From NCBI GenBank assembly GCA_003194525.1, contig NBIV01000011.1, positions 496,001-560,000 on the forward strand: DNA of 64,000 nt, read 5' to 3'. The DNA comes from Gracilariopsis chorda. Its lineage: Eukaryota > Rhodophyta > Florideophyceae > Gracilariales > Gracilariaceae. This document shows positions 866 through 28,143 of this stretch, piece after piece; position 1 is the stretch's first letter; each line of letters starts with the position of its first letter. The notes beneath the pieces are model-generated. The model worked only from the letters and a program-made list of their open reading frames with translations. It had not been told where the DNA came from and searched no databases. The position numbers were made by a program, and so were the translations under genes.

Positions 866-1014
866 AGTGGGCATAGCCGTCTTGGTGAGCTTTTTATATC
901 TCATTCTATCTAGGTACAATAGTATAAGTTTTACATGTGAACTGATTACCGAAAGATAATGAGATTGTCTTTGTTGTGTTTAAACTATTTTATACTTCGC
1001 ACAAAACGTAAACG

Positions 1015-3410: not shown

Positions 3411-4157
3411 AGACCGCGAAATATAAACGCTTACACTTTACTGATCGTCCGGTAGCGCACAAATATCAATAATTTGTGGCGTCTCCTTTGGCATCAATAA
3501 TAGCCAAAATGCGCCGCTTCAGACTATTGTAGAGCTTGAGCAAGTAATCAGTAGAGAGTTCGTCCCAGACTTTGACCATTGTAGCCTTCAGTTCATCAGT
3601 ACTCTCGAACCGTCTATAGCCACAATAGACCTTCCTTGCCATCTCACCCCAGACATTTTCAATAATATTTAGGTCTGGGGACTTAGCCGGCCACGGTAAC
3701 GTCCGCACGCTGTTATCTGGCAGCCAACAACGGGTTAAGTTTGCGGTATGTATAGAAGCATTATCCTGCTAAAAAATATACGGATGGGATTATCCAAAAC
3801 ACTCTACCACAAAAGGCAGAAAGCCATCCTTTAAAGTCCTGCAATACTTCTCTGCATTCTGCTTGTCATAAATGAACATCAATTTGGAAACATCGTAAAG
3901 AGATATAGCAACCCAAACCATGACAGACCCCCCACCATTTTGCCTTGTCGAGAAGCGATCAGCATCCTTCCTAAACTCGTGCCAGTAGAACGCCAAACCA
4001 TCGGGCCCATCTAGATTAAACTTCTTTTCATCAGAAAAAACAACTTTTATCCAGAAATAATCACCTTTACTTATATGCCTGCGTGCCCACTTCAGTCGAT
4101 TTTCGCGGTGTGTAGAAGTCATTCGTGGAGCTTTCAGAAGTTTTCGGTACTTCAAGT

Positions 4158-5762
4158 TGAAGTGCAACGCTAATAGCAGTATCAGCACGTGGTGCATGAA
4201 GTGCAACGCCCTCAGGGAGAGATTCTGGGTACTTGATCTTTTTCCCGATATTATCGGTTGTGCAGTGTGTGTATGAACTACGCCCCACAATGGTGGGTAT
4301 GGACACGTGGGACACGGTTTTGGGCCAATTGGCGGTTGGCGACAGTAGTGGATGTTGCCACGAAATGTGGAGTATTTTAGTTAATATTATTTATTATTGT
4401 CACACCAATTTCTGGGAAGGTAGTACTTAGTGCGACGGCGCACTGCCGTCGCACCAGTAAACCTTCCCCAACAAGGGACCCCAACCTGGGGAATTGGCTC
4501 TAGTTGTTGCCGCTTGCGCGCGTACTCTACTCCTCCTTGGAGGGAAACGACGTAAACCACGGGACATCTAACCCCCTTGCACATCTAAAGAAGCCCATCC
4601 TTGGGAGTATAATTGTTCCAATCATATTGGTGTTTCGCCCTGTATAGGGAGTCCTGTCCACCGGCATTGCCGTATCTGTTCGTCGCTCTCGTGACTCACC
4701 TCGTCCTCTCTTCCTCCTCTTCGCCCTTCCTTTTCCCGCTTTTCAGGGTAGCACCTCCCGCTACCCGCGGCGCTCGTGTGCGCATCCGCTCACACACCCC
4801 CATTTACGTGGAAACATACCTCTACTGAGGATCACACCCCGCTCACGCGGATACCGATTCTTCGCCTTCACCTCCCTGCGCGAGTCGCGACAGGTGTCCC
4901 TGGTCTTACAAACCGGCTTCGCCGTGACACCTCTGGGAGGGCTCTACCCAACTGGGTTCACCTCTTGAGAGGAAGATCCCGAACGTCTTTCGGTGTTTTT
5001 CCCCTTTGGGGCATTGCACCACAGTGCAGTCATATTCCGCGTTGGCGATCCTAACCTCTCTACCATGGAGTATGAGTGTTACACCGGTATGTTGTTTCCG
5101 TTTGAAGGGCCCCAATTTGGTTGACAAGTGTAGTGCACAGCATTGCTGGCTTGTGCCACACGTGTGTAGAGTTTCGCACCCCCTTAGGGATATTATTAGT
5201 TAATTACTTTTGTACTGTCAGGGCGCGGGCCACCACTACTTATGTGTGTGAGCTCCGGCTGTCCGGGTCAAAGTAAACGCAACAAGCGAGTGTCTGGCTC
5301 TAACTCAGGTTCCCTGGTGAGTGTCCACCTCCATCTGGAGAGACGCCATCCTGTGAAGGCCTAGTTACCCACCTCGTGGAGCTTCAGCACATTCTTACCA
5401 CTACTGTGTTTGTTTCTGTGCACGCCTTTACAGCGGTTATTGTTCTTTTGTCCCGTATACAGGTGTCGTTGTTTCTGCGACTACCGGTGATTACCGTTGC
5501 TCCGCTACCACCGCCCCACTCGTGTGGACACCGCACCGCTCTTGCGCGTCACCCACCACTCGTGTGTCGCTGCATTTTCCGCTTTCCCACTTCGTGGTCT
5601 GTCTTGGTTTCTACACCTGTACGCTAGTCGTGACAGTGAGTCCCGGTCTTACACCCGGCTTCGTGTGCTCACCACAGGTGGTTTTGCCGCTGCGCTACCC
5701 TCACAGAGGAGGACGTCGAACACCCTTGTGTGTCTGCTCCCATCTCGGGGTATTGCACTACA
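4158..5762 (+). mobile_element. Solo LTR, family 2, split by a second LTR
   Basis: The ends are TGAAGTGCAACGC at 4158 and GGGGTATTGCACTACA ending at 5762. A perfect 5-bp target duplication CAAGT flanks it at 4153-4157 and 5763-5767. Without the nested LTR its own length is about 773 bp. The two sides of the Tc1 transposase rejoin across it. No internal retrotransposon coding sequence remains, so it is a solo LTR left by LTR-LTR recombination. Orientation follows the terminal similarity to the chromovirus LTR. Confidence 0.85.
4197..5023 (+). mobile_element. Solo LTR, family 1 (chromovirus LTR), nested in family 2
   Basis: This 827-bp copy matches the LTRs at 17992-18816 and 27066-27891 closely. 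It begins TGAAGTGCAACGCCC and ends GCATTGCACCACA. A perfect target duplication GTGCA lies at 4192-4196 and 5024-5028, inside the family 2 LTR. A 10-bp-arm hairpin (GTGCGACGGC, loop GCACT) sits at 4430-4454, and smaller palindromes follow every 20-30 bp to the right end. Confidence 0.92.
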
Positions 5763-6414
5763 CAAGTGGGGTGTACTGCGTAAGATTTGTTGAATTTGGC
5801 GCACTCCAACCTTCAGATTCAGACTGGTTTTAAGCGCATAGGCACTATAATTTCCAGTAGAGGCCAGTCTAATGAGGAGACGCTTACTCGTCTCCGTTAG
5901 CTTAAGAGCATTTTTAGGTGCTACGGTACTGGTTCGACTGCGATGGCGCTTCAGAAAACGAGATATTGTTAATGTCATCTCGGTTGAGCTGCTCTGCAAT
6001 GGTTCGAAGTGGTACGTGCTCGCTGTGCAGAGCGAGAATTTGGCCTTTCTCAAAGTCAGAGAGGTGGCCTGGTGGTGCCATTGATAATGAAGATGTAACT
6101 TGTTTAAGACGTTCAAGTTATGCACTCATGTGATGAGAGCATTTGTGAAGAGTTTGGGTGTTCAAGTATCGGTAATTTGGCGGCACGCTCAAGAGCAATA
6201 ATTTGTTAGCGTTTGTTTTTCGTCCCCTTGTTCGTGCCTTTTTTGGTAAACGGCCGGTTGTATTAGAAATGAATGAACTTTTCTATCTACAGGCACATGA
6301 CTTTAGTTAACGAATACGGAGCTTTTACTAGATGGATAACAACAATCAATTGGGCGAAGTATGGTGTAGTCGGGGAGTATGCAATAGATGTTGCGTTTTT
6401 ATTTTCGCGGACTG

Positions 6415-11614: not shown

Positions 11615-12381
11615 TGCGCTGCACGCCCTATGAGGATGGATCTTCAGCCCTTATTACTTTTCCGATTTTTCAACCCATCTACAATACTGTGGCACTTCTT
11701 AGCGTAATGCACCATGGAAACGGACTCTGTACGTTTTACACAGATGTGCCACTGTACTGGATAGCATTTTGCAATTTAACTACCTATTTTGTTCTTACAG
11801 TGCAAGTTTTAGTACTTCGTGCGCTAGTAACTTGCTGTTGCGCTACTAAACCTTCTTCAACAATGAAAACCAAATTTAAGAATACGCTCTATATCTGACC
11901 GCCTTAGCGCGTTTTCTTCTGTTCTTTGGAAGAACGCACAGTAGCATAGGAATAAACTAACACTCTTGATCATCTAAAGAACCCTTATATTTGTATTTTT
12001 ACTACAACTGTCTTGGGGTCCGCCTTGAATAATTTCTATTTACCCAAACGGCTGTTACTTTCTTTCACGACACTTGTCGCTGATTCCCACATATTCTCCC
12101 CTTTAGTGGGTGGCTTTACCGCTATTTGCGCGCCGTGCTCACACGTGCCACTATCGTAGAAACTTACCTTTATGTAGAACGACCCTCTACATACACCGCT
12201 CTTCCGGATACCCAATTCTTGCGTCAACCTCCCTCTGCAAGCCACGACGGATGGTCTCGTCCTTACAACCCGACATAGTCGTGCCACTCCTGGGAGGCCT
12301 CTTTTCAATTGGGCTCACCTTTCAGGAGGAAAAATCCCGAACCTCTCTCGGTGCACTCCCTCTTCTGGGCATTGTGCTACA
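11615..12381 (+). mobile_element. Degenerate solo LTR related to family 1
   Basis: It begins TGCGCTGCACGCCC and ends GGGCATTGTGCTACA, diverged forms of the family 1 termini. Internal blocks align in order with 4197-5023, for example CTAAACCTTCTTCAACAA, then ATACCCAATTCTTGCG, then AAATCCCGAACC. The flanks GTCGG and GTTTG no longer match. Several micro-palindromes are kept with altered arms: CGACataGTCG at 12271-12281 stands where 4914-4924 has CGGCttcGCCG. Confidence 0.75.
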
Positions 12382-12545
12382 GTTTGAAGCTGTTTCTCTC
12401 TCCTTGCCCCCTTCCATCCAAAGTGGTACAGAAGGGGCCCTTTATTTATACTGTTGGAACGTGTGGCTCGTGCCGCACGTTCCAATCAGTGGACCAGAAC
12501 AATTCTGCGTCCGTCTACACCGTCCCTCGAAAATAAGATAGCAGC

Positions 12546-13459
12546 TGTGGTGCAATCCCGGTGTGGGAAAGGCACCCAAGGCAGCTCGAAGCCTTGCTCT
12601 CTTGGAGAGGTAGGCCCAGCTGGGTAGAGCCCTCCGTGTCCCGTATGACGGGTGTAACTCCGTCGGGAGCCTGGATGTACCTCGGAGGTTTAGGGGTTAG
12701 AACGGGTCGGAACCACAGCTGGTACGGAAGTAGCCTGCGAGCAGGGGAACAAAAGAGGGAAAGGGACCACCCTACGGGGGCGTGCGGAAAGCAGGAACAG
12801 ACCCCGGAGGGGGGTGCCGATACACACACACGAACACGCACCGCGCGGCGGTAAGGGGATATGAGGGGAAGAGATGGTCTCACGGTCTCACGACACACGT
12901 CGGTAATATCAATACCCAAAACTGGGGCGGAGATAGGGCCTGTACGGGCGGTCACACGAAAACAATGAATACCACGAGTGGTCACAACCCACTGGGTACG
13001 ACGAGCACGGTCTCCTCGGTGGTGCGAGTCGGGTGAAACTACCGGGCAAGCGGTGTACCTCCGCGAGGAGTTAGACACTTCGCATGGCGAATAGAGTCAG
13101 AGCCGAACTCTCTTTTTCTTTTCTTGGTGAGCTCGCCGTCGTGCGGCCGACGCTCAAGTACTAGCTCAGTGCAGTACAGTAGGTAGTGCAGTAGCCTAAG
13201 TAAAATTAACCCCTAAACTACACTAAAATAAGTAGCCATTTTGGGCCTCCTGGCCGGGGCTGTAGCCACGTGTCCACCACCCTTGCCAGGCAAGTACCAC
13301 AAAATATGAATGTTCCCATAACCACCCTGGGTAACCCGACCGCTAATTAGCCCGGTAAACGGTGGCTAAAATTCATGCATCCCGCTTCATCGCTCGCACC
13401 GAGTACACCTCAGATATGAGTTTCACCATCGCCCGTACGCGGGAATGTACTGCACTACA
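12546..13459 (-). mobile_element. Solo LTR, family 3
   Basis: The plus-strand ends are TGTGGTGCAATCCCGG and GTACTGCACTACA. The perfect 5-bp target duplication GCAGC lies at 12541-12545 and 13460-13464. Length is 914 bp. It contains the same style of small palindromes as family 1, such as CTCTCttgGAGAG at 12597-12609, CCCAgcTGGG and CTCCgtcGGGAG. Orientation is opposite to the copy just to its left. No coding sequence inside is credible. Confidence 0.88.
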
Positions 13460-13676: not shown

Positions 13677-16600
13677 TTACTCAGTGGATGTTTTGTTCCT
13701 AAGCCCACATAATACTGTGAGAACTCTCAATCGTTCCACCGGGAGTGACTTTGTGAATATATCAGTGGCTTGCGTGTCTGTCCTTATTGGCTTTATGTCA
13801 ATGACTCCAGTCTCAACGAGCTCTTTGATATGGTGATGTTTTAGAGCTATGTGCTTGTTCCTTTCAGAGACTCTCGGATTCTTAGCTATCGACAGCGCAC
13901 TCGAGGTATCCGAATATGTAGATATTGGATACATGTCCGGTTCATCGTCAAGGACCTTTTCAGCGCTCAGCTCCCAGAACAGTCTTCGGAGCCAGGTCAC
14001 AATTTTCCCACAGTACGACATGGCCACATATTCAGCTTCACCAGACGACAGGGTAATTAGAGATTGCTTCTTAGTCGTCCACATAATTGGTGCTTCGTTC
14101 ACCTTTATTATTACTCCCGTCGTGGACTTCCACGTTTCGCGGCATCCAGCCCAATCAGCGTCACAATACGCTTCCATTGGAGCCGTAGTGTTAGAGGGAT
14201 AGAACAAGCCAAGACCCTTCGTACCTTTGAGGTATCGTAACACTCTCTTCGCTAGTCCAACATGCCGCAAGCATGGGTCATGGACTTGCCTTGCTAGCAT
14301 CGAGGCTGCGAACATGATGTCAGGCCTGGAGTTCACGGCCAAATACATCAAACAACCTACCAACTATCGGTTGTGTGTTCCTGTAGACACGGCGCGTTCT
14401 TCATCGTGGCGGCTGGTCAGATCTTCCTTGGTGGGCAGGGGTGTTTGAGAAACGTTACAGTTCTCAAGCCCGTTCTCTTTTATTATCTTATCGATATAAC
14501 GAGTCTGGGTGACCATTATGCCCTGGTCGTTTCGCTCGATCTGTAGTCCCACAAATGACTTTGCCTCACCAAAGAGCTTAACCTTGAACAGGTTTGTCAT
14601 CTCAGCCTTGAAGTCCTGGAGTAGACTATATGAGTTGCAGGCCATAAGAATATCGTCCACGACTATGACGAGTATTAGGGTACCACTCTTGGACGAGTAC
14701 AGGTATAGCCGACTGTCGGTGGTAGACTGTCTGAATCCCAAGCGAATCAACTCGCTGTGCATCAATGAGCCCCATATGTGTCCGGCTTGTTTCGCTCCAT
14801 ATATCGATTTTAGGAGTAAGCAAACCTTTCCTGGGACAAAGGAGGATCCAGAGGAATTAGTTGTTTGCTCCATGATAAGAGGCTCATCTAGATCACCATA
14901 GAGATACGCGTTGCTCACATCCATGGTCTCTAAGATCAAGCCTTGTGCTGCGGCTTTTGCAAAGACCATGCGGATGGTTTCGAGTCTCGCAACCGGTGCG
15001 TATAGGGTCTCAGGGTCAAAATCGATGTAGGGGCGTTGCATGTCGCCCCGTGCAACGCAGCGTGCCTTAGGTAAGATACGAGGTGGGTCTTCGCTAAGGA
15101 GTTTGGCAATGAACCTCCAAAGGAATGGTAAAGGTTTCACCCCCGGCTTCCTGTCTACAAGCCTCCATGTCCCTCTTTCTACCAAGGCATAGTACTCCCT
15201 GTCGATAGCTTCGGCCCAGCCTCTCATCTTCCGCGCTTCGTCGAAGTTCTTTGGGACTCCGCCGTCATCCCTAAGACCTTCGGAGCGCGAGAAGGATACG
15301 AGACAGTGTGCCAGAGATGCATCGAGGTGTTCCTCGGAATCTTCATCCATGTTCACCTCGGCATGCTGTCTTCGGAGGGAAGAGAAGTCGATCAGGTCTT
15401 TGAAGGATGGTAGTTTGTCCTTGCTTACTTTGAAGTCTGCCTTGCGGCACTTTATTACTTTATCAGTCGATGGGATGTATACCCTGTACAAAGTGCGGGG
15501 ACTTTGTATACCAACAAAGTTACCAGGAAGTGCCCGGGGTAGTAGCTTCTTATTCGGTGCGGTGTCTGATCTGTATATGAACGCATGTCCTGGCTGTCCA
15601 AACTTTAATAGGTTGGTGAAGTCAGGCTTCTCACCAAACCACAGGGTGTACGGGACTCTCATGTCTACCCGTTGGTTTGGTAGTCGATTTCTAAGATAGT
15701 TTGCGTGAGAGATTGCCTCTTCCCAGAGTTCCTGTGGTAACTTGGACTCAAACAGGAAGGTGCGGGCAACTTTCAAAAGATCTTGAATGGTCTTCTCCGC
15801 GACGCCATTTGATTGATGCGCATATGTTGGGGTGCATTCAAGGATGATGCCATTCTCCATTGCATATGTGACGAAGTCATCGGAGCGATTCTCACCCGCC
15901 CCGTCAAGGCGAACGCGGTACATTCGATTCGGAGGCACCTCGTTTTCCGCGCGAGCCTTGTACCAACGAATGGATTGGAAGAATTGTGTCTTTTTACTAA
16001 GGAAGTAAATGGCACTCGTCCTTTTCCTGTCGTCGATAAGGACTTGCATATATCGCGATCCTTGCAGCGAAGGTGGCGTGATGGGTCCGCTGAGATCAGT
16101 GTGAGTGAATTCGAGGTTACTGCTTGCAGTTTTTCAATTTGTTGCAGTGGAGCCCGTTTTGTTCCGGCTTGTATGCATGGGTTGCATATGATGTTGCGTA
16201 CCTCCTCACTTGAGAATCGTGGTACCCCGTGAGATGTCTCAACGCACTTGAGTAGTTTGTCTCGGCCAGGGTGGCCGAGTTTCTCATGCCAGTCGTGAGG
16301 GTTGTCACCAATCTGTCGCATTGCCATGTGAGCCATAGGGGAGGGTAAGGGGTTGGGAAGTGGGTAGAGTCCGTGTCTTGGCCTTGATGTGAAGAATACC
16401 TCTCCTGTGCTCTTGTGCTTTATAATGAAGCTGGTTTCTGCCTCAGTGGAGAATTCGACGTCTACTTGTGATGCCAGAGTGGAGAGGGAGATTAGGTTGG
16501 AGTCGAAGCTTGGGGTATGCTTTGCTGGTAACATCACACCGTTTGCGCCGAAAGGTAACTTTATTTTCCCAAGTCCCACGCTGTTGGATGTATTATCGCA

Positions 16601-17668
16601 AGTATTCACGGTTTGTGGTGGGGTTGTGTGATATTCCCAGAACAGGGAATTGTCTTTGATGAAGACATGACTTGCTCCTGAGTCCAACCATGTCGGTGTG
16701 TGTTGCTCGGAATGTACGCTGGCGTTGGCGATCGCTACGAATCCGCGGTGGTTTTGGTTTTGCTTGTTGTGGTTGTTGTTGTTGCTGCGGTTGGCATCCT
16801 GTCGATGGTTTCCTTGCTGGTTAGTCCCGTTTCGGTTTGAATCCCACGAGCGGTTTGTGTTATTGCTCTTGTTTTTACCGTGTTGAGTGGTTTCCGAGGA
16901 CTTGTTGTTGGTTTTCCTCCAGCATTCGGAACGAATGTGTCCGATACGCCCGCAGTTCCAACATTTTACGCCTCTTTTCTTTGGCTTTGTGTGCTGTCTT
17001 TTGCCTTGTGAAGACTTCTTTGCGGCCGGGTATGGGTGTGTTCGGTCGTTTGGTTTCGATGCCGTAGTGTTGTTTGGGCGATGAGCCCTACGGTCCATTT
17101 CTGATCGCACTAGGGATACCACCTGGTCGTATTCCATATTTGTAGCGTCAGCCAGTAGTGTGATGGCCATGAGTGACTCTGGAAGGGAACGAAGTAACGT
17201 GGCAGTCCTTTCCTTATCTGTCACTGGGTCGCCTAGGCGTGCGAGTTCTAAGAAAGTGGTTTCAAGGGTAATGAGGTGATTTTGTATGTCCTCACCGTCT
17301 TTATATGCCATGGTGCTAAGCTTTTGGCGAAGGTTCAACTTTGACTGTATGTTGTCCTTCTTATATGTGGCCTCTAGTTTGGTCCACACTTCCAAAGCGG
17401 AGCAGTACTCCCTTTCCAGGAGTTCTGATACAGCGACAATCGGCTGTGTTCCAAGGTTCTGTACGATCGCGGAGCGTGCTTTGCGATCGGCATCGTCCCA
17501 GCGCTTTCGGGTTGCTGCGCTTCTCTCTGTGGGTCGAGGTTCGGTGAGGACGAAAAGGGATTGTGATGAGTGCATGAGATCCCTTACGTAGATGCGCCAA
17601 GTGTAGTAGTCGGCGCTCCCCTGTAGTCGGGGTATTCTTTTTTTGTCGTATTCTCGCTCTGTGTCCAT
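13677..17668 (-). pseudogene. Copia-2 polyprotein (gag-PR-INT-RT-RH), decayed
   Basis: Gag begins at 17668 with a UBN2-type capsid region (L-L-R-S-L-P-E-S) and a zinc knuckle C-W-N-C-G-R-I-G-H-I-R-S-E-C near 16945. The protease motif W-L-D-S-G-A-S-H is near 16690 and the GAG-pre-integrase H-E-K-L-G-H-P near 16290. A frame change near 16130 separates this from the integrase (Q-S-N-G-V-A-E-K) and RT (M-D-V-S-N-A-Y; V-V-D-D). A single in-frame TAG at 14361-14363 cuts RT from RNase H (C-D-A-D-W-A-G; L-S-S-G-E-A-E-Y; K-H-I-A-L-K-H-H). With only one frame change and one nonsense codon it is a fairly young corpse. It lacks the palindrome density of the neighbouring chromovirus. Confidence 0.9.
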
Positions 17669-17991
17669 CGCGGAGTGTTCTCGACGCGAGGCTTATCCAG
17701 AGGGGCAGATCGTTTGTATACTTCACCGGTCCCCTACCGGGCGAGGGATCCTTCTGCCACTCTTTGAGTAGCCGGGCCCACTGACAAGAGATAATATCTC
17801 TGGTACCTTAAGGGTCAGACCCCTGGCTCCGAGTTAGACTCTCTCGGTGAGGTGCGCTTTCAGCTGCCTTTCTATGTCCTGCGCAATCCAGGACTAAGGT
17901 GCGTGTAACGTACGGATCGTCCAGTGAATGGTTAATGACCAGTAGATATGCCTTCACCAATACACTCCCTCTAGATCCTTGCGGCTGCTTG
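17669..17991. other. Region between Copia-2 and the chromovirus
   Basis: Presumably Copia-2 leader and 5' LTR sequence, truncated where the chromovirus inserted. No primer binding site or direct repeat partner is recognisable. It holds no credible gene. Confidence 0.35.
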
Positions 17992-18816
17992 TGTCGTGCA
18001 ATGCCCCAAAGGGGAAAAACACCGAAAGAAGTTCGGGATTTTCCTCTCACGAGGTGAACCCAGTTGGGTAGAGCCCTCCCAGAGGTGTCACGTCGAAGCC
18101 GGTTTGTAAGACCAGGGACACCTGTCGCGACTCGCGCAGGGAGGTGAAGGCGAAGAATCGGTATCCGCGTGAGCGGGGTGTGATCCTCAGTAGAGGTATG
18201 TTTCCACGTAAGTGGGGAAGTGTGAGCGGATGCGCACACGAGGGCCGCGGATAGCGGGATAGCTACCCTAAAAAGGGGAAAAGGAAGGGCGAAGAGGAGG
18301 AAGAGAGGACGATGTGAGTCGCGAGAGCGACGGGCAGATACGGCAGTGCCGGTGGACAGGACTCCCTATACAGGGCGAAACACCAATATGATTGGAACAA
18401 TTATACTCCCAGTGATGGGTTTCTTTAGATGTGCAAGGGGGTTAGATGTCCCGTGGTTTACGTCGTTTCCCTCCAAGGAGGAGTAGAGTACGCGCGCAAG
18501 CGGCAACAACTAGAGCCAATTCCCCAGGTTGGGGTCCCTTGTTTGGGAAGGTTTACTGGTGCGACGGCAGTGCGCCGTCGCACTAAGTACTAGATTCCCA
18601 GAAATGGGTGTGAAAATAATAAATAATATTAACTAAAATACTCCACATTTCGTGGCAACATCCACTACTGTGGCCAACCGCCAATTGACCCAAAACCGTG
18701 TCCCACGTGTCCATACCCACCATTGTGGGGCGTAGTTCATATACACACTACAAAACCGATAATATCGGGAAAGCGTTCAAGTACCAAGAATCCCTCCCTG
18801 AGGGCGTTGCACTACA
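17992..18816 (-). repeat. 3' LTR of the chromovirus
   Basis: Plus-strand ends are TGTCGTGCAATGCCCC and GGGCGTTGCACTACA. The terminal inverted repeat is about 15 bp, far longer than the usual TG...CA. One base in the left terminus (TGTC for TGTG) and one palindrome arm near 18090 (CGTC for CGGC) differ from the 5' LTR. Confidence 0.93.
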
Positions 18817-18830
18817 TATCCCCCCCTAAG
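18817..18830 (-). promoter_or_regulatory. Polypurine tract
   Basis: On the minus strand CTTAGGGGGGGATA ends exactly at the 3' LTR start. This is the expected position and composition for plus-strand priming. Confidence 0.8.
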
Positions 18831-19070
18831 ACGGGAAAACGACCGCGGACGCGGAGGGTTCCCAGACGAAAATGGGTGATAAAAGCGCGTCGGCCGTCTC
18901 CGGTTCTTCTTTCCTGGCGTAGCCGGCTATTGTAGTATAGTGTTGTGGGAGCTAGCTGCTCCCTTGAATAAACTTTCCCGTTTTGAACCGTGATTCTCAT
19001 TTGAGTTCCCCGTCTTCGACATACCTTGCCTTGTTATCCTTTTCTATCGCCCTCCGTTCGCATGGCAACG

Positions 19071-19619
19071 TTACCCAACTTGGGCATTTACCAGCGTGGC
19101 TGGAGCTGCAGTTCCCGTTTGACGGTGGTATCGCACGACCTGCGACCGTGGGAGGTGTTCGATTGGCTCCCACGTATCCCCACTGGGGTCATACCCGTAC
19201 CAGCGGACGCGGTATTGTAGAATACCATCCTGGTCCCTGGTGTGTCCGACAAGTCGGTCTACTACGAACTCTCGTTCGTAGACCTGCCGGCCGTGCCGGG
19301 TGGTGGTTGTACTTCCTTGCGGGGGCTGCCCGCTGTGCGGTATAATGTCCCTTAGCAGGGTGTTCGGCGATAACTCCGGCGTTGCCGTGCGCTGTGATAG
19401 CGGCCGCTGCTCATGCGGGAAGATATCCCTCAAGAGGGTGTGTGGTGCCACGGTTTTCACCGGCAAATCATTCCCCATTGGGGCAGGTTCATTTCCGCTT
19501 TCGCGGTATTGCGGGCGAACCGCCAGTCGGCGTGGGACTTGGGCTCCGCCTTCGCGGTTGAGCTCACGAACCGCGAGTTTGCGGGAAGATGACCGCTCCT
19601 GCGGGGTCGGCATTTCCAC
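19071..19619 (-). CDS. Chromovirus C-terminal chromodomain
   Basis: The last 60 residues or so form a chromodomain: Y-E-R-E-F-V-V-D-R-L-V, then Y-R-V-R-W-Y-G-Y, then D-T-W-E-P-I-E-H-L, then a helix ending R-Y-H-R-Q. The aromatic-cage positions Y, W and W/Y are present. In chromoviruses this domain follows integrase and directs integration towards modified histones. Here it is separated from the integrase C-terminus by an unusually long, proline- and glycine-rich linker. The true reading frame start is upstream; the left part of this frame is linker. Confidence 0.85.
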   Translation of the reverse strand: MEMPTPQERSSSRKLAVRELNREGGAQVPRRLAVRPQYRESGNEPAPMGNDLPVKTVAPHTLLRDIFPHEQRPLSQRTATPELSPNTLLRDIIPHSGQPPQGSTTTTRHGRQVYEREFVVDRLVGHTRDQDGILQYRVRWYGYDPSGDTWEPIEHLPRSQVVRYHRQTGTAAPATLVNAQVG

Positions 19620-20840
19620 AATCCCCTGCGGGGTCCCGTGTTACACGGTGATTGGGTGGCAAACCGCCTCCCTGCCAGGCGCACGAGCGCTCTGCACCAT
19701 ACGTTCCGGCGATGCTGTGGTGTCCCCGGCTACTGACGGGTTGCCAGGGGCTAACTCCGGTACACCGGTATTTTGGTCAAAATTCCCCTTTGGGGGGTGC
19801 CGGGCAGGTGCCGATGACACCCTTTTCAGGGGAATTGCCGCTAAGCGCGGTGCACCATCTCCATGAGGAGGAGCAGCGTCCGGTGCGACCGGTTTCGAGC
19901 GTGCGATGGCGCGCGTTTTTCCCGAGTTCCTCGGTTCTTCGCCGCAGCGTTGCGGGGGTTGGCGCAAATTATTCCCTGTAGCGGGGGCTTCGATTCCGTC
20001 AACGACGGGAGGCGCTTCCGGTGCTTGCGAGCCAGGGCTCAAAGCTTCGACTGCGGCTTGGCTGCCTTTTTCCCCAGGTTGGGTGTGGGGATTTCCCTGT
20101 GAGGCCGGCGTATCTGGGCGCCCCTTCTCCGCAAGGCGCGGGTCTGATCGACCTAATTGAACCGCTTCCGCGGGGACTTCCGCCAACGGCGGCTTCGAGG
20201 CATCGCCCTGCTCAGGGGATTGGGGGCAATCGTCACAATACTCCCTTATCGGGGATCCTTCCCTGACAGGGGTGTGCGGTAGTTGCGCTTCAACTTCCCG
20301 TGTAGCACGGTATGTTTTCCGCGTTTGTGGCGATGCCTCTGGGGATGGATTGGGCGATTGCCTTTCCGCTGCTGCGGTATTGGAGTGAGGCTTCTCGTTT
20401 TCCCGTGACAAACGGTGTATTTGCCGCTTTTGCGGGGCCTGCGCGTCTGGTTCCTGTTGCACAGCACTGCGGGAACGGGGGATTAGTGTCGCGTGACATA
20501 CTCCGTGCTCCACGGTCAGTGTTCCGTATGTTACGGTGTGTTTCCCGTTGCGACGGCGATATCGTTCCTCGAAAACGAGTGTTCTCCTCCCCCTCTTTAG
20601 ACGGAGCGGCTGGATAAGGGATAACATTCCCCGCCTGGCGGGTATAGATGCGCGCCAGTGGGGCAGACGTGGTAGGGGCGGGCGCTGAGGGGCCCGAATT
20701 ACCCGGCTGAGCCGGTGAGTCCGACAGAGTCGGTAGGTCTGAGAGTCCCCGGCTGGGGTTTGGTAGTACCGTAGTTCTAGTACTCCCGGATGGATCCGGG
20801 GTTGCAGAGTCCGTAGAAACGGGGTTGCCTGGATCCAGGA
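19620..20840 (-). CDS. Hairpin-laden linker between integrase and chromodomain
   Basis: About 400 codons encode low-complexity P/G/R/N/T-rich sequence with no recognisable domain. At DNA level it is a chain of short palindromes of CCGN...NCGG type, for example at 20298-20310, 20366-20377, 20402-20414, 20424-20435, 20503-20515, 20524-20536 and 20574-20585. The protein shows only loose repeats such as N-T-x-L-x-G. The reading frame changes once near 20600. I suspect nucleotide structure, not protein sequence, shapes it. Confidence 0.6.
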
Positions 20841-23800
20841 CTACCTCTGACGAGGGAGGAGGGGCAAGGACAACACGATCACGGGAAATCCGTTCGTGCG
20901 TGTCGCCCATCTCTACCACGACAGTGTCGATGTTAACAGAGATGACCTTGAAGGGTCCATCCACCACAGGCGAAAGTTTCTGACGCTTCTCCCGTTCCGG
21001 GTTGTAGTACTCCTTCCTGATGAAGACGTAGTTATTTGCCCGAATCGGGGGGGTCTTTCCTCGCAAGCGAGCGTCAAAATCGCGCTTGTAAGCGGCTTGG
21101 GCCCGTGCCATAGACTTCCGCGCAGCGGGGACCAGCTTGGAAAGCCATTGCTTCCATTGCTGCCGGTAGATACCCACAGATGGGAAATTGTCCAAGGTAG
21201 CTTGGGGTTCCAGCGCCACAGGCGGGGGTGTTCTAGATAGAACCAACTCGAATGGCGAAACTCCGGTAGTCCGGTGTACCTGCGTATTTTACGCGAAGGT
21301 TAACGCATCAGCGTAGAGATCCCAATTCTTTGGGTGGTCTGCGACGTAGGAACGTAACACCGCGAGTAACGTCCGGTTAAACCGTTCAACTTGCCCATTA
21401 CACTGGGGGTGGTAGGTAGTCGTGAACAAGTTCTTGACATCCAGGATGCAACAAACATCCTGGAAGAACTTGCTCACGAACTGCTTCCCGTTGTCGGAGA
21501 GCACCTCCACAGGGGGACCCTAGACAAAAATCCAGTGTGTCACCAGAGCCTGGGCCACCGTGAGAGCGGTTATCCTCCGAAGAGGGACAGTCCGTACCAG
21601 CTTAGAAAAGCGGTCGGTGATGACAAGTAGAAACTCGTTTCCACGTTTTGTGGTGAGTAGTGGTCCGAGAAGATCAATTGCGATAAACTCGAGTGGCGCC
21701 CTTGCGGGGAATAGTTTCATCTTCTTCGCATTTTTGCAGAGTTTGACGCGATTCTTCGCGCATTCGCTACAAAACAGCACAGTTGCATAGCAATCCACCG
21801 CCATTGCGGGCCAATAGAAATCCCTTCGCAGGGTTAGGTAGAGTTTCCTCCCACCTGGGTGACCTCCAATGGGGGCGTAGTGTGATAGATGTAACACCCG
21901 CGATTGCAGGGAATGTGGTACCACAATCTGTGGGCGGGCTTCGACCTTCCTCACGAGGTAGCCTTTGTCGTTTACCCCGAAAGGGAGATCTTCACCACCG
22001 TTGATACGGGCACGAATTTTCGTACAGAATGGGTCGCTGAATTGTTCTCGGATCATTTCTTCCGGTGATACCGGTACAAAGTTTCCCGGTAACGGGTTCT
22101 CAGATTTATCTCGCGATGCGAGTAGTTCGTCAATATCAGCATCCTCGTCCCAGTTTTCTGGCCTAGCCTCGACGGCATATTCCGGATCATCCGGGTCTAT
22201 AGCCATGAAACATGGGACTTCATCATCCTCCGTTGGGAGTGCTTCCCCACTTGTGGGTAACCGCGACAAAGCGTCGGCCTGGGTGTTCTGCGCACCCTTT
22301 TTATAAATGACTTGAAAGTCATATTCCGCGAGGCGGAGTCTCCAGCGCATGAGGCGTCCCGACGGGTCGGAGATATTCATCAACCACCTCAATGAGGAAT
22401 GATCCGTGTACACGGTGAAGTGAATTCCCATAAGGTAGGGGCGCAGAGTGGTCATCGCCCATACGACGGCGAGGCACTCTTTCTCCGATACGGAGTAGTT
22501 CCGCTCATGAACATTGAAGCGAGCGCGACCAATAACCAATTGGATGTCGTTCCCCCTCGGGGTGGTTTGAAAAAGAGCACACCCGACTTGGTAGTCGCTC
22601 GACTCCGTATCTACGGAGTATGGCAACCCAAGTTTTGGGAGATGTAGGATTGGTGCTGATGTGACAGCCTCCTTTAAGGAGTTGAAGGCTTCCGATTGCT
22701 CGGGCGTAAATGTTCCCAGTTTTGGGTGGTTCCCCTTTCGCAACAACGCGTTCAGGGGCGCCGCAGTATCCGAAAAATTCGGGATAAACCGTCGATAGAC
22801 GTTGACCAGCCCCAGAAAGGAGCGCAGTTCCGTTTGAGTACGGGGTTCTTTCGCCTCAACGAGGGATTGGACTCGAACTTTCTCGATCGCTAACCGTCCA
22901 GGACGGATAATGTGACCCAGATACTTCACAGTATCTGTGAAAACTCGCATTTCCTCAACTTGAGGGTAATTCCCGCATCGCGGAGTACGGTCAGCACGTC
23001 TCGGACGTGAGTGACATGGTCGTCCAACGAGTTGGAGAAGATGATAATATCATCAAGGTAGACCAGACAGCTCCGCCACTTAAAGCGGTTGAGTAGAATA
23101 TCTACTGCACGCTGAAAGGTGGCGGGGGCATTGGTTAACCCAAATGGCATCCGCTTGAAGCGGTACGTTCCTGCATGGCAGGTGAATGCGGTTTTGTCGC
23201 GATCCTCCTGTCTGACAGGTACTTGCCAATATCCCCAATTGGCATCAAGGGCCGTGAACACGGTGGCGTCTCCAGGGATTCAATGCACTCATCCATACGA
23301 GGGATGGGGTACGTGTCCCTAACAGTCACGGCATTGAGCCGGCGGTAGTCGACACAGAACCTCCAGGTTCCGTCGGCCTTTAAAGCCAGTACAACTGGGG
23401 ATGCCCAGGGTGATTGAGCGGGCTCAATCACACCTGCGCGGAGGATCTTGTCCGCTTGGGACTGCTCCTCTTCCCGAGCTTTCGGACCTGCCCTGTAAGG
23501 GGGTTGTGCAACTGGTCGCGCACCGGGGATTAAATCGATCCGGTGTTCCGTTGCATTAATCTCGCCAAGCGAGCCATCCCACATTGTGGTGAATTCCCGT
23601 AACATAGTACGGAGTTTGTCGCGGTGCGATTCTGGCACGTGGCTGAAGTCCAGCGCTTCAAGTGCTTTTTCCGGATCAATCCGGTCGTTGCTCGATGGAG
23701 CATTGTCCTGTGGAACAGGTGTGGTTCGCAATTCCGAGTTACTCGGTATGTTCGACGCTGAAGTAGCGGTTTCCTCCCCCTCCTTAGACTTGACGTCTTC

Positions 23801-23998
23801 GGACGGCGGGGCGAACTCCTCGGAAGAGGTGGTAACTCCGAGTACATCGGCGGCTGTCATCTTTGTTGGCAGCATTCCCATAGGATGGGGGGTTACACTC
23901 CCAATTACTTGGTGTTTGACCAGATACTGGGGGTGTTTGCCAAGGTTGGCAACCAATATCCGGAAATGGAACATCCGGGGAAATGGAGACAATTCCAT
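20841..23998 (-). pseudogene. Chromovirus RT-RNase H-integrase
   Basis: RT begins near 23400 (R-F-C-V-D-Y-R-R-L-N; Y-P-I-P-R-M-D) and continues with L-D-A-N-W-G-Y-W-Q-V, F-G-L-T-N-A-P-A-T-F-Q and the catalytic Y-L-D-D-I-I-I-F near 23060. RNase H of the vestigial Gypsy kind shows Y-S-V-S-E-K-E-C-L-A and T-D-H-S-S-L-R-W. The integrase H-H-C-C finger (H-Y-A-P-I-G-G-H ... C-S-E-C) is near 21800, and the core has S-D-N-G-K-Q-F and C-N-G-Q-V-E-R-F-N. Frame changes lie near 23250 and 22940. In-frame stops lie at about 21517 (TAG) and 21288 (TAA), each where the family normally has tyrosine. The family is certain; the copy is not autonomous. Confidence 0.9.
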
Positions 23999-24545
23999 TA
24001 GCCAGCGCCAGCTGGGATTTCTCGTACAACGAGGCGAGGGGTTGTATAACCCGAAGACCGTGTTGACGGGAATTTACCTGCACCCAGACTTGGGACTCAG
24101 CCGGTATAGAAACCGAGGCAGCGACGCGGAGCTTGGTGGACTCGCGGGACGCGGGCGGTGGTTCCTGCGCAGCAGGGAGCGGAACTTGTTTCCGAGAGGA
24201 CCGCTTTAGCGGGCGGCGAACAATCGGAACCGACGATCCGTCGTCAAGTTCTACACGCCTGAGGCGGGGCCTGATTGCGTCGACAAATCTGTCGCAGTAA
24301 TCACATCCCAGTATGACTGGTGCTGCCAATGAACGGCAAACGATGAAGTCCAACTTCACCACAGAGGTACCAAGTCTCACGACGAGGTCCACTGTGCCCA
24401 CCGTTTGTAACGGATTGTTGTTCGCATCCGAAATGTCGGGGACCGCGTCAGAGCGGATACGCGACCGCACAAGCGGGGGTAACAATGATTCCACAACAAA
24501 GTTGGGGCCTGCACCTGTATCCAGGACGGTGAGAAACCTCACCAT
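23784..24545 (-). CDS. Chromovirus aspartic protease region
   Basis: The retropepsin motif V-L-D-T-G-A-G-P-N-F lies near the start of this 253-codon frame, followed by V-I-L-G-C-D-Y-C-D, equivalent to the I-L-G-x-D block of Gypsy proteases. The protease would cut the gag-pol precursor within virus-like particles. The frame runs on past the domain into shifted sequence. Upstream, 25116-24793 is linker between gag and protease with dense palindromes such as CCGCCttcGGCGG and CCCGttgaCGGG. Confidence 0.8.
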   Translation of the reverse strand: MVRFLTVLDTGAGPNFVVESLLPPLVRSRIRSDAVPDISDANNNPLQTVGTVDLVVRLGTSVVKLDFIVCRSLAAPVILGCDYCDRFVDAIRPRLRRVELDDGSSVPIVRRPLKRSSRKQVPLPAAQEPPPASRESTKLRVAASVSIPAESQVWVQVNSRQHGLRVIQPLASLYEKSQLALANGIVSISPDVPFPDIGCQPWQTPPVSGQTPSNWECNPPSYGNAANKDDSRRCTRSYHLFRGVRPAVRRRQV

Positions 24546-25293
24546 AAACTGGGGTCAAGGCCAAGGTCGGCATAGACCTTATAATTGCGCTTGGCCAAGA
24601 CCAAGACTCTACCGGGAATCCGGGGATTTTTACTCCGTATCCACGGGCGACGCAACACACCGAGGTGCGCAGAGTCCGCGTCAGCGGTGTCTTTCCTCGA
24701 GAGGACTTTCACCGGGGAGCGAGGCGAGGACGCCTCGGGCGCCAACAGCCTCGTTCTTGAGGACGCCTCTCCCAAAGGGGAGACTCCCTCAGTTAGTTTT
24801 CCGCCTTCGGCGGTGGGTTGGTTTCCTCGACAACGAGTGCTTCATCCCGTTGACGGGGGTTTCTATCCGCATAAGCGGGGGTTGCAACGGATGGTTGCGT
24901 GATCTCCCGAATCGGGGTGTATGAAGCTTGCCGCGCACGCGGGGTCTGTGGTAGGGCGTGGGAAAAGTCCGTTTTAGCACGGAGGTAGGAAGCCGTCGGG
25001 ACGGAACGTTTCTCCTCTGGAGTGAGGGCCTCATAATTTGCCACCACCTTGGCCATATCCTTCAGTGAACAAATACACTGAGGGAGGTATGGCCATGGGC
25101 ATAGCACAGGTGGCAAATGAGAGCCAGCACCGCGACACGCGGATTATTATTCCGAGTATCGGAGAAGCGAACCGCAGGGCGGGTGTCAGTCCATCCAGGC
25201 CGTTGATAACGGGATTGACCGTTTGAAAACGGGAGTCGTTGGGGTTGAACCCGACTGTTACCACCGTATAAAACGGGGTCTTCCGTTCCCGTA

Positions 25294-26573
25294 TCATGGG
25301 TCATCTCCGTCGTTGACGCAAATCACTGGTGGGTATCGACACACCATCCCCTGCACTAAATGCACGGTATCAAATCCCTGTCCAGGGTTCCCATCCGCGG
25401 TGAGCGGGAGAGAGGAAGCTTCGCTTTCCAGCAACAACGCCTTGGCGGATTTAGACCGATTGTTCGGAGTTCTTGCACGAAGTGCATCCCCTTCCGCTCG
25501 AGCGTGTTGGACCAGCTCGAGGTAGGTGATCCTCCGCTTGTCCTCCCGATAACGGGTAACTAAACTCCGGATTGCCGGGTCAAGACCATCAATGAACATG
25601 GTACTGCGCTCCCCAGCGGGGTATACGTTACCACATCTGTGGAAAGCCTTGTTAAGGCGCACCGAGTAATCGGTCTCGGTCTCTCCAGCACGCTGGCGTG
25701 TATCTCGCAAAGCGAGGATAGCCTGCTGAATAGCGGTGTTGGTGGCGTAGGAGCGCAGAAGATACTGCACAGCCTCCGGCCAGCAAGTAACTCCTCCCTC
25801 GGAGGCGCGAGAAGATCCTCTGACAGAGGTGTATTGGTCCTCCGCCACTCCCCGTAAGAAATACGGTAAAGCCAAATAGGCTTGTCCCTCATTCATACCG
25901 AGGATATCGGCCTCCGCTACAAAGCGGGATAGGAAATCCAGTACTAGGACTGGGTCCTCTCCAGTAAAATACTGGTTGCGGAGCGAGAGCTGCATTCGCT
26001 TAATGCATTCTCGCACCTTTCCCGTACCACGGGGCGTACGTCCAAGTGACGAGTCTTCGAGCCGGTAGTACCGGTATGATAAAAGCTTCCGGTAATCCGG
26101 GTTTGTCGGTTTCAATTCCCGGAGACCGGGGTGTCTTCTCCCCTTCTGGCGGGTTCGGACCACACCTTCAGTGGCCGATGACCGCTTCGAGCGGGAGGAG
26201 TAGCCTCGCTTCTCGTCCTCCGAGTCGGAGTCCGAGGAGCTCGAGCTAACCGAATGGTTTCGGGATGAGTCCGACGATGTCGAAGAATCGGAGTCCGAAT
26301 ATTTCGGTGGTGTTTCCGTCGATGACGGCGTTTCTTCTTCCCAGCAAGCTGGTCGTTGTGCGATGCCTCGTTTACCGGATCATCCGGGGATGGTTTGTCC
26401 ATGAGGACGAACTGCTCCAGCGTCTCCAGGCGGGCACCAATCCGATCAAATCGGGCTTCAACTCCTTCGATGAAGGTGGCGGGTTGTCCCAAACTCTCCA
26501 ACACGGAGTTGACGTCAGACCGTAAAATACGGAGTTCCTCGGCGACCTCCTTTACGGGGGTTGCCGAGACCAC
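25294..26573 (-). pseudogene. Chromovirus gag
   Basis: The upstream part (26573-26112) is a coiled-coil-like acidic and leucine segment with a basic K-K-K-R-R-H-R-R-K patch. The downstream frame (26163-25294) holds the gag domain: F-T-G-E-D-P-V-L-V-L-D-F-L, then E-G-Q-A-Y-L-A-L-P, then E-T-E-T-D-Y-S-V-R-L. No CCHC zinc knuckle is visible, unlike many chromoviruses. The two parts are in different frames and overlap by about 50 bp, implying a frame change near 26140. Confidence 0.75.
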
Positions 26574-27041
26574 CTCTTGGAGGGATTTTAGTTCCCCTAC
26601 AAGGGTGTCATGGGCGGTCCACAGAGCGCGGACCTGGGATTCCAGGGAAGTCCCCTGGGGGTGTTATCGCCCGTTCCACGGGGGCTTGAAGCCGCGACAG
26701 CGGGAGCAGGCCGGGGTGCCTGGGGCACTGCGGCAACAGCCGGAGTCGATGCTGCATTCCCCTGCGGGGTGATAACGAGGGCAAAAGGAGGTTCCGGGGT
26801 TCCCGGTCGGGGGTATCATTCCGCGATGAAGCGGCGCCAGCACGGCTGGAACTTGTCCGTATGGGATACGGGGTACGAACCGAACTTCGGAAGTGTCCGC
26901 GTTGTCGCGGGAGCGACTACGCGTAACCACTGGCTCCGCGTCGGAGGGATTTCTCGACATGAGAAATTACCGTTACGACGGGAAACGATCACGGAACTTC
27001 CGGTATATAAAAAAAAACCTCGTAAGAGGGAAAACAAAAAC

Positions 27042-27062
27042 CGATTCTAGGTCGGGAGACCA
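27042..27062 (-). promoter_or_regulatory. Primer binding site of the chromovirus
   Basis: On the minus strand TGGTCTCCCGACCTAGAATC begins three bases after the 5' LTR. Its complement reads as a tRNA 3' end: T-loop remnant CGATTC, T-stem and acceptor strands, discriminator A and CCA. The tRNA identity cannot be named without the host tRNA set. Confidence 0.75.
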
Positions 27063-27065
27063 CTT

Positions 27066-27891
27066 TGTGGTGCAATGCCCCAAAGGGGAAAAACACCGAA
27101 AGACGTTCGGGATCTTCCTCTCACGAGGTGAGCCCAGTTGGGTAGAGCCCTCCCAGAGGTGTCACGGCGAAGCCGGTTTGTAAGACCAGGGACACCTGTC
27201 GCGACTTGCGCAGGGAGGTGAAGGCGAAGAATCGGTATCCGCGTGAGCGGGATGTGGTCCTCGTAGAGGTATGTTTCCACGTAAGTGGGGGTGTGTGAGC
27301 GGATGCGCACACGAGGGCCGCGGATAGCGGGAGGTGCTACCCTAAAAAGGGGAAAAAGGAAGGGCGAAGAGGAGGAAGAGAGGACGATGTGAGTCGCGAG
27401 AGCGACGAGCAGATACGGCAATGCCGGTGGACAGGACTCCCTATACAGGGCGAAACACCAATATGAATGGAACAATTATACTCCCAGTGATGGGTTTCTT
27501 TAGATGTGCAAGGGGGTTAGATGTCCCGTGGTTTACGGCGTTTCCCTCCAAGGAGGAGTAGAGTACGCGCGCAAGCGGCAACAACTAGAGCCAATTCCCC
27601 AGGTTGGGGTCCCTTGTTGGGGAAGGTTTACTGGTGCGACGGCAGTGCGCCGTCGCACTAAGTACTAGCTTCCCAGAAATGGGTGTGAAAATAATAAATA
27701 ATATTAACTAAAATACTCCACATTTCGTGGCAACATCCACTACTGTGGCCAACCGCCAATTGACCCAAAACCGTGTCCCACGTGTCCATATCCACCATAG
27801 TGGGGCGTAGTTCATATACACACTACACAACCGATAATATCGGGAAAGCGTTCAAGTACCAAGAATCCCTCCTTGAGGGCGTTGCACTACA
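27066..27891 (-). repeat. 5' LTR of the chromovirus
   Basis: Plus-strand ends are TGTGGTGCAATGCCCC and GGGCGTTGCACTACA. From 27078 to 27450 at least thirteen perfect palindromes with arms of 4-5 bp follow one another without overlap, among them CCTCtcacGAGG, CGGCgaaGCCG, CCGCgtgaGCGG, CCACgtaaGTGG, GTCGCgagaGCGAC and CCCTatacAGGG. Confidence 0.93.
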
Positions 27892-28143
27892 AGGATAATG
27901 TCCGGAGGTCAGAGCGCCTCGGCAGCCATATAGGTTGGCTCGAGTGCCGCCGATCTCTGAAGTGTAAATACAAGCATCCTCACCGTCTTCTTGCCGCCAT
28001 ATGCAGCCAGTAGGACTCCAAAGACCTCCAAGCAATCGCTACCATTCTCACGACCTGTAGGGACTTGAGATAGCGCCCGCCCATTGCGCCTCGCTGCCAG
28101 TTGGTACCCGCGTCCCTAATAGACGCAGTGGATTGTCACCCCA
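27892..28143. other. Spacer between two chromoviruses
   Basis: No open frame with a recognisable domain. It may be decayed upstream sequence of the following Gypsy remnant. Confidence 0.35.

What the first reader, a model, noticed from the sequence alone, without database searches (positions are those of the whole stretch)
27066..27891. Chromovirus LTR is a chain of micro-palindromes with a compensatory arm change
Between 27078 and 27450 at least thirteen non-overlapping perfect palindromes (arms 4-5 bp, loops mostly 3-5 nt) follow each other every 20-35 bp, far more than the two or three I would expect by chance for those sizes. A 10-bp-arm hairpin lies further on, at the place matching 4430-4454 in the solo copy. 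In diverged LTRs the arms change but stay complementary: CGGCttcGCCG at 4914-4924 corresponds to CGACataGTCG at 12271-12281, and CCTCtcacGAGG at 27117-27128 to CTCTCttgGAGAG at 12597-12609. That pattern suggests selection on, or a mutational process creating, stem-loops. Possible roles (RNA packaging, shielding from siRNA, template switching) are inference.
Basis: partly seen in the sequence, partly recalled or inferred. Interest (0 to 1): 0.88.

Follow-up and report, generated by a model that had tools for sequence, protein, structure and literature searches.

The report
Retrotransposon packed with selected micro-hairpins
A family of jumping genes in a red-seaweed genome carries a perfect tiny hairpin about every 30 bases along nearly its whole length, including its protein-coding parts, and these hairpins appear to be kept by selection while the element is mobile, which hints at an undescribed way for a retroelement to mark or handle its own genome.

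Summary
The LTR at 27066-27891 holds 28 perfect hairpins where shuffles give 9.2. The element at 17992-27891, coding sequence included, is saturated: 32 per kb against 8-10 in three other stretches of the window. The rule is sharp: 4-5 Watson-Crick pairs, loop 3-5, G.U counting as a mismatch, and in this family CC/GG at the stem base. Strict CC hairpins number 199 against 14.7 expected, and 25 against 2.5 under synonymous shuffling of a pol piece.

Four related families (A-D; D from one 601-bp piece) in the same genome share saturation and form one clade; the nearest sister and 16 other Ty3/gypsy loci sampled lack it. Hairpin sites turn over between A and B, and the stem signature differs by family. 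Among copies, private mutations hit stems as chance predicts. Variants shared by at least three copies avoid them (strict hairpins 3 of 95; odds ratio 0.16).

This fits weak selection per hairpin during the mobile phase better than chance or template-switch mutation. Compensatory change within families is rare, so that part of the claim is weak. Most likely role, unproven: dispersed docking sites for Gag nucleocapsid. DNA-level and mutational explanations remain open.

The parts
17992..27891 (-). Complete but damaged chromovirus (family A), sense on the minus strand, hairpin-saturated along almost its whole length
   Evidence: LTRs 97% alike; 199 strict CC hairpins vs 14.7 shuffled; 320 hairpins of loop 3-5, mean spacing 30.9 nt; 18.8 strict per kb vs 0.36-0.71 per kb in three other parts of the window
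27066..27891 (-). 5' LTR (sense orientation), 28 perfect hairpins
   Evidence: 28 vs 9.2 in shuffles, 0 of 500
27078..27450 (-).
   Evidence: 14 vs 3.8
27634..27658 (-). 10-bp-arm hairpin, loop 5
17992..18816 (-). 3' LTR, 29 hairpins
4197..5023 (+). Solo LTR of family A with 5-bp duplication GTGCA, 25 hairpins
24793..26663 (-). gag region, broken in this copy; Gag pieces of families A, B and C carry one CCHC knuckle (recognised by eye)
   Evidence: 34.7 hairpins per kb vs 10.4 shuffled
22926..23279 (-). RT fragment ORF
   Evidence: RVT_1 E 4.9e-28
21520..23049 (-). RNase H and integrase zinc-binding ORF
   Evidence: RT_RNaseH 6.7e-28, Integrase_H2C2 2.6e-12
20290..21288 (-). ORF taken as integrase core/C-terminal region by likeness to intact copies; no Pfam hit of its own at E 0.01
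19071..19640 (-). Chromodomain ORF
   Evidence: Chromo E 5.4e-11
18817..19070 (-). 3' untranslated stretch, the one part without hairpin excess (2 hairpins, 1 of them strict)
   Evidence: 7.9 per kb vs 10.5 shuffled
12545..13459 (-). LTR of sister family B (915 bp; 25 hairpins in the majority state of 30 copies)
12189..12353 (-). Diverged A-like LTR fragment, 70-74% alike, few hairpins left perfect

Best explanation
Shown: a clade of chromoviruses in this red-algal genome carries hundreds of short hairpins per element (320 with loop 3-5 in the window's copy). The rule is at least 4 Watson-Crick pairs, loop 3-5, with a stem signature that differs by family (A: CC/GG at the stem base). Each hairpin looks weakly favoured and interchangeable, so sites turn over while density stays. 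Losses are scarce among variants that reached several copies, but not among private ones. Inferred: the hairpins are dispersed docking sites for an element-encoded, family-specific nucleic-acid binder, most simply the CCHC nucleocapsid part of Gag. They would coat, condense and mark the element's own genome for packaging and reverse transcription, and keep co-resident families apart.
For: Density and element restriction. Not protein-driven: 41 hairpins vs 15.6 (max 25 of 300) under synonymous shuffling of pol piece L063, strict CC 25 vs 2.5 (max 7). Geometry in A: arm 5/loop 3 9.6-fold, arm 4/loop 4 3.5-fold, arm 3 0.7-1.3, arm 4 with loops of 7-10 0.9-1.2. Sequence-specific: outer CC 15-fold, outer GG 1.3-fold in A, though the two stacks should be equally stable. 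In CC..GG frames inner G-C 13.5-fold, A-T 14.1-fold, G.T 0.7-fold, A.C 1.9-fold, other mismatches 1.0. One clade: A, B, C and D together, support 96/92, sisters L109 and L103 unsaturated. Loss of strict hairpins: singletons 137 of 790 (17.3%, equal to the 2666 of 15438 possible changes), shared by >=3 copies 3 of 95, OR 0.16, p 8e-5; by >=2 copies 16 of 191, OR 0.44, p 0.002; all hairpins, six alignments pooled, OR 0.41 (>=2) and 0.26 (>=3); stratified by CpG and transition OR 0.47, z -3.1. An 18-fold enrichment predicts a relative loss rate near 0.17 under selection and near 1 under pure mutational bias (my estimate). Spacing peak 20-25 nt in A; the Ty3 capsid paper gives about 20 RNA bases per Gag (PMC6525542, passage seen). 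A, B and C Gags hold a CCHC knuckle.
Against: No binding, packaging or structure-probing data. An RNA-reading protein would usually tolerate some G.U, yet none is seen. Regular spacing is clear in A (z 5.7) and C (z 4.6) but B (z 2.7; 2.2 in a second B copy) does not exceed a host control stretch (z 2.9 at another period). Within families compensation is almost absent. The shared-variant test is not significant in B LTRs alone (OR 0.41, p 0.11; >=3 OR 0.59, p 0.43), shows nothing in the internal pieces alone (>=3 OR 0.77 and 1.41), nor for arms outside the strict CC class (OR 0.75, p 0.26). Some copies are the two LTRs of one insertion, so 'shared by two' is not always independent. Gains are few (OR 1.6, not significant). 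The 3' untranslated stretch has no excess.
Confidence: 0.4

Rival explanations
1. Mutational drive: the element's reverse transcriptase makes and repairs short perfect inverted repeats by fold-back template switching, and the family signature is its sequence preference. No function is needed.
For: Strict Watson-Crick pairing and near-equal enrichment of A-T and G-C in the inner pairs of strict hairpins are what copying would give. Template switching is known to create and maintain hairpins (PMC8794818, abstract seen). No surplus of hairpins with one mismatch at the middle stem positions, which repair of near-perfect stems would also give.
Against: At the observed enrichment the implied repair rate is only about 8 times the point mutation rate (my estimate), too slow to clear broken hairpins from copies about 1-5% apart; yet shared losses are 0.16-0.44 of expectation. 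Repair should often give compensated pairs: 1 against 112 broken cells in LTRs. Hairpins created only by two linked changes: 11 of 408 change pairs, each in a single copy, none shared (no chance expectation was computed).
Confidence: 0.18
2. The hairpins act in single-stranded DNA during reverse transcription (minus-strand cDNA), for example as sites for nucleocapsid, integrase or plus-strand start, rather than in RNA.
For: G.T in the sense strand counts as a mismatch (0.7-fold) while A.C, a wobble in the antisense strand, is 1.9-fold in strict frames of A (19 vs 10.0); one-wobble antisense stems z 1.7, 3.5, 1.8 in A, B, C.
Against: In the same count other mismatches reach z 3.0, 2.3, 2.4, so only B stands out. 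In the general stem count the antisense bias is small (0.98, 1.13, 1.21 in A, B, C), and shared stem variants giving sense G.U are not fewer than those giving A.C (17 vs 11).
Confidence: 0.18
3. Generic structure: many short stems keep the RNA compact and hidden from silencing or nucleases (genome-scale ordered structure).
For: Whole-element distribution and positional turnover; folding energy below shuffles in both strands, z -3.3 and -3.4 for A.
Against: Folding signal is weak in B sense (z -1.2) and C sense (z -1.8).
Confidence: 0.1
4. Chance, composition, or coding constraint: the palindromes are a by-product of base composition, repeats or protein sequence.
For: Only the chance background of about 10 per kb.
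Against: Dinucleotide shuffles 0 of 500; synonymous shuffles 0 of 300; other gypsy loci of the same genome and a related element without it.
Confidence: 0.02

Closest known systems
Dispersed packaging signals of RNA viruses (Twarock and Stockley model; PMC6281560, abstract seen)
   Same: Many short sequence-structure motifs spread through the genome, sharing a recognition motif; a role in selective coating is conceivable.
   Different: Here about 320 per 9.9 kb, motif in the stem base rather than the loop, strict Watson-Crick rule, in an LTR retrotransposon; binding untested.
Genome-scale ordered RNA structure (recalled; one search gave listings only)
   Same: Diffuse, genome-wide excess of local pairing with no single conserved site.
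Template-switch mutations that create and maintain hairpins (Monttinen and Loytynoja 2022, PMC8794818, abstract seen)
   Same: Perfect inverted repeats with short loops.
   Different: Shared losses are depleted; shared multi-base creation events were not found and within-family compensation is rare here.
Ty1 and Ty3 RNA packaging (PMC4974528, passages seen; PMC6525542, passages seen)
   Same: Gag with zinc-knuckle nucleocapsid (Ty3), undefined scattered packaging determinants, about 20 bases of RNA per Gag in Ty3.
   Different: I know of no comparable hairpin array described in Ty elements (recall; no search of mine was aimed at that alone).

Membership tests
Chromovirus (Ty3/gypsy, chromodomain-bearing) | Chromodomain at the C-terminal end of pol | tested here: met
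   window 19074-19640(-), PF00385 E 5.4e-11
Chromovirus (Ty3/gypsy, chromodomain-bearing) | RT, RNase H and integrase in Ty3/gypsy order between two LTRs | tested here: met
   RVT_1, RT_RNaseH and Integrase_H2C2, LTRs 97% alike
Chromovirus (Ty3/gypsy, chromodomain-bearing) | Gag with CCHC knuckle | tested here: met
   Seen by eye in Gag pieces of A, B and C; no zf-CCHC hit in Pfam at E 0.1
Dispersed packaging signals | Many genome-wide stem-loops with a shared recognition motif | tested here: met
   199 strict CC hairpins vs 14.7 in family A
Dispersed packaging signals | Specific binding by the coat or Gag protein that drives assembly | not testable with these tools
   Needs binding and assembly assays
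Genome-scale ordered RNA structure | Pairing tuned to RNA stability, wobble pairs accepted | tested here: not met
   G.T 0.96-fold at internal stem positions (A+B+C), 0.7-fold in strict frames of A
Template-switch mutation hairpins | Multi-base changes create or repair stems in one event | tested here: inconclusive
   Of 408 linked change pairs, 11 create a hairpin jointly, each in a single copy, none shared; no chance expectation computed
Template-switch mutation hairpins | Losses arise and persist at the neutral rate until repaired | tested here: not met
   Shared losses of strict hairpins OR 0.16 (>=3) and 0.44 (>=2) relative to singletons

The most novel reading that the evidence does not exclude
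A retroelement clade has evolved a digital self-recognition code: hundreds of interchangeable hairpins, each read only for Watson-Crick closure plus a family-specific pair signature, by a co-evolving element protein, so that co-resident families each mark and handle their own genome along its full length instead of through one packaging site.
Probability: 0.3. Interest if true: 0.95.

Novelty: new variant of a known kind. Interest (0 to 1): 0.85.

Why it matters
How LTR retrotransposons pick their own RNA is an open question; a review of Ty1 and Ty3 says the cis-acting sequences are not clearly defined and that scattered sites may contribute (PMC4974528, passages seen). Here candidate sites are visible in sequence, with families of differing stem signature as natural variants and an unsaturated sister in the same genome as control. 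It also offers a case where a genome-wide constraint overlapping coding DNA can be quantified.

Tried and rejected
LTR-only reading: rejected, the internal region is equally dense. Rfam: no hit in the window at gathering scores. Sense-strand wobble as evidence for RNA: no surplus at internal positions. Passive creation and decay: disfavoured, no surplus of hairpins with one mismatch at the middle stem positions, though terminal positions and a few mismatch types are raised; I first counted this against every mutational model, but repair of near-perfect stems gives the same result, so it is not used against that rival. Conserved hairpin positions: rejected, only 10 of 77 A hairpins are perfect at the same sites in B and 7 of 67 the other way. 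LTR A versus B alignment: 48% identity, too diverged to test pairs. DNA-helical spacing: A and C show regular spacing, B does not exceed a host control, so a common period was dropped. Searches of plasmids with the LTR and of viral contigs with protein patterns found no relatives; genome contigs gave two loci, by their labels contaminants in bacterial MAGs, both without saturation. L103 does hold nine perfect stems of 8 bp built on GGCGCC, all beyond position 6290; they look like another kind of repeat and were not followed. One search was void: minus-strand loci were not turned; redone. One search counted two B copies twice (L061/L035 and L062/L037); redone without them. Of the 45 matches, 30 loci were fetched and 29 used beside three window LTRs. 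In the tree L110 was not labelled saturated when built, so its own count of label changes (2) is not used; the clade statement is read from the printed tree. Literature searches for a described case listed none among the titles and abstract starts shown; most held more papers than were listed.

Full report
WHAT IS THERE. The window lies in a 91.3-Mb, 1081-contig genome. Its NHL-thioredoxin protein is closest to Gracilaria domingensis (73%) and Agarophyton chilense (69%) among hits that carry an organism name, so the host is most likely a florideophyte red alga near the Gracilariales; I do not name the species. The finding lies in the 5' LTR of a chromovirus at 17992-27891 whose sense strand is the minus strand. 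It has two LTRs 97% alike, RT, RNase H and integrase zinc-binding ORFs and a chromodomain. This copy is broken into several ORFs.

The named stretch has 14 perfect palindromes against 3.8 in shuffles, the LTR 28 against 9.2, the internal region 285 against 103. A 1-kb scan of the 64-kb window shows 30-39 hairpins per kb throughout the element and 3-19 in the bins away from chromovirus pieces, where shuffles give about 8-16; further excess appears at the other chromovirus pieces (28 and 19 at 4001-6000, 24 at 12001-13000). Gag, pol, linker, chromodomain and LTRs are alike in density; only the 254-bp 3' untranslated stretch lacks the excess (2 hairpins, one of them strict).

THE RULE. In family A, stems of exactly 3 bp are not enriched. 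Stems of 4 bp with loop 4 are up 3.5-fold and stems of 5 bp with loop 3 up 9.6-fold; 4-bp stems with loops of 7 or more are at chance. Pairs must be Watson-Crick: at internal stem positions of A, B and C together G.T is 0.96-fold and A.C 1.10-fold. In A the stem base is CC/GG: outer CC 15-fold, outer GG 1.3-fold. CC-N8-GG frames with two inner Watson-Crick pairs number 85 against 4.7. In such frames (N7 and N8) A-T and G-C inner pairs are equally favoured, 14.1- and 13.5-fold; in the looser count G-C is ahead (A 5.0 vs 3.0, B 3.9 vs 2.3, C 4.3 vs 3.2). So closure seems to count more than stability. A has 199 strict hairpins against 14.7, B 40 against 7.6, C 11 against 3.5: the CC rule is mainly A's. 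B prefers C second from the outside and CG next to the loop; C prefers G next to the loop. No clear reading-frame phase preference was seen in the pol piece.

NOT CODING, NOT COMPOSITION. In an open 1434-bp pol piece of another copy (L063, no stops), 41 hairpins stand against 15.6 after synonymous codon shuffling (maximum 25 of 300), and 25 strict ones against 2.5 (maximum 7). A host ORF has 17 against 22.8 and a Copia ORF 17 against 19.0.

ONE CLADE. From the 150 RNase H hits listed (itself a capped list) I fetched 19: 14 and 5. Of these, 17 show no excess (z -1.5 to 1.6) and 2 do: L075 (family C, 31 per kb) and L110 (family D, 30 per kb, 601 bp only). Families A and B were reached through their LTRs. 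Two chromodomain loci outside the clade (L106, L107) show none; a third (L105) is family A and does. In a tree of 26 protein rows the saturated loci (A, B, C, and L110, unlabelled when the tree was built) make up one 7-row clade with support 96/92. Its sister pair (support 90/90) is L109 (54% identity, same genome, 4 hairpins against 7.1) and L103, a chromovirus on a contig binned with a Moorena MAG (47%); L103 showed no 1-kb bin above z 0.5 and 6 strict CC hairpins against 6.1. L103 is a long branch. The trait therefore looks derived and kept through deep divergence.

TURNOVER. Between A and B, 67% alike in pol, only 10 of 77 A hairpins are perfect at the same sites in B and 7 of 67 the other way; pairing at A sites in B is 0.52 against 0.48 for isolated pairs, at B sites in A 0.56 against 0.50. 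Density persists, positions mostly do not. Both-changed pairs are compensated in 23 of 36 (A to B; p 0.0002 against 0.34) but only 16 of 39 the other way (p 0.22). Between two A copies 94% alike, stem pairs are broken on one side less often than isolated pairs (0.047 vs 0.104).

SELECTION OR MUTATION. I compared private variants (one copy; mostly after insertion) with variants shared by several copies (mostly arisen in the mobile lineage). The alignments were 32 A LTRs, 30 B LTRs, 24 A pol pieces, 9 and 7 A internal pieces and 5 B internal pieces. Pooled, hairpin losses are 210 of 924 private, 24 of 226 shared by at least two and 8 of 115 shared by at least three: odds ratios against neutral 0.41 (p 5e-5) and 0.26 (p 3e-5); gains 1.57 and 1.12, not significant. 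Stratified by CpG and transition the loss ratio is 0.47, z -3.1. For strict CC hairpins (four A alignments) private losses are 137 of 790, 17.3%, equal to the share of possible changes (2666 of 15438); shared by at least two, 16 of 191 (odds ratio 0.44); by at least three, 3 of 95 (odds ratio 0.16, p 8e-5). Not every subset is significant alone: B LTRs p 0.11, internal pieces no signal, arms outside the strict class p 0.26. Some copies are the two LTRs of one insertion, so the >=3 class is the cleaner one.

A simple balance makes this informative. If hairpins are n-fold enriched by selection, the relative rate of loss should be ln(n)/(n-1); for n = 18 that is 0.17. If they are enriched by a repairing mutation process, loss stays near 1 and gain rises n-fold. 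The observed strict loss ratio is 0.16, with a gain ratio of 2.4 from only 2 events. This is my estimate, it assumes equilibrium, and the gains are too few to settle the point.

MECHANISM. Shown: density, rule, clade restriction in the sample, turnover, depletion of shared losses. Inferred: a protein reader. Family-specific stem signatures with the same free-sequence Watson-Crick rule fit a co-evolving binder better than passive stability. A, B and C Gags carry one CCHC knuckle, differing in sequence (read by eye; no Pfam hit). Spacing peaks at 20-25 nt in A; the Ty3 capsid holds about 20 RNA bases per Gag (PMC6525542, passages seen). That match is suggestive only, and B shows no more regularity than a host control. 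The main difficulty is the absence of G.U pairs, which would be natural if single-stranded cDNA were read; a mild excess of A.C over G.T in strict frames of A (19 against 10.0 versus 6 against 9.0) points to the antisense strand but is weak.

NOVELTY. The searches listed no description of such an array; they cover open-licence PMC papers only, and I saw titles and abstract starts of the top rows. The nearest ideas are dispersed packaging signals (PMC6281560, abstract) and template-switch hairpins (PMC8794818, abstract). It fails one defining test of the latter, with another inconclusive, and the wobble test of ordered RNA structure; the binding test of the former could not be run.

Noticed in passing
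window 1-1005: Tandem array of 141-bp units (6 copies in register, the first 5 of them 98-100% alike) overlapping a 285-aa open frame at 36-893 on the minus strand.
   Followed up: no
window 8349-10946 and 14364-17692: Two Copia elements or fragments (RVT_2, gag-pre-integrase, gag domains); no hairpin excess, used as controls.
   Followed up: partly
window 17987-17991 and 27892-27896: The full element lacks matching target-site duplications (GCTTG and AGGAT), while the solo LTR has GTGCA on both sides; the full element may be recombinant.
   Followed up: partly
window 18817-19070: The 254 bp before the 3' LTR are the only stretch of the element without hairpin excess.
   Followed up: partly
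window 27041-27065: Just after the 5' LTR (sense) family A reads AAGTGGTCTCCCGACC and family B AGTGGTCTCCCGACC: a shared tRNA-type primer binding site by appearance; no tRNA was matched.
   Followed up: no
L103 6292-7948: Nine perfect 8-bp stems built on GGCGCC with 3-nt loops in the outer part of the Moorena-MAG contig, mostly beyond its long open frames: a different palindromic repeat.
   Followed up: no
L103, L104: Ty3/gypsy-type coding sequence on contigs inside MAGs labelled Moorena and Bacteroidetes: probable bin contamination.
   Followed up: partly
P0201: A reverse transcriptase/RNase H protein 69% like family A is filed under a Sphaerochaetaceae MAG, probably contamination.
   Followed up: no
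L113 (polyprotein piece of a family A copy): Several hundred residues of low-complexity linker lie between integrase and chromodomain; the frame stays open through hairpin-dense DNA.
   Followed up: no
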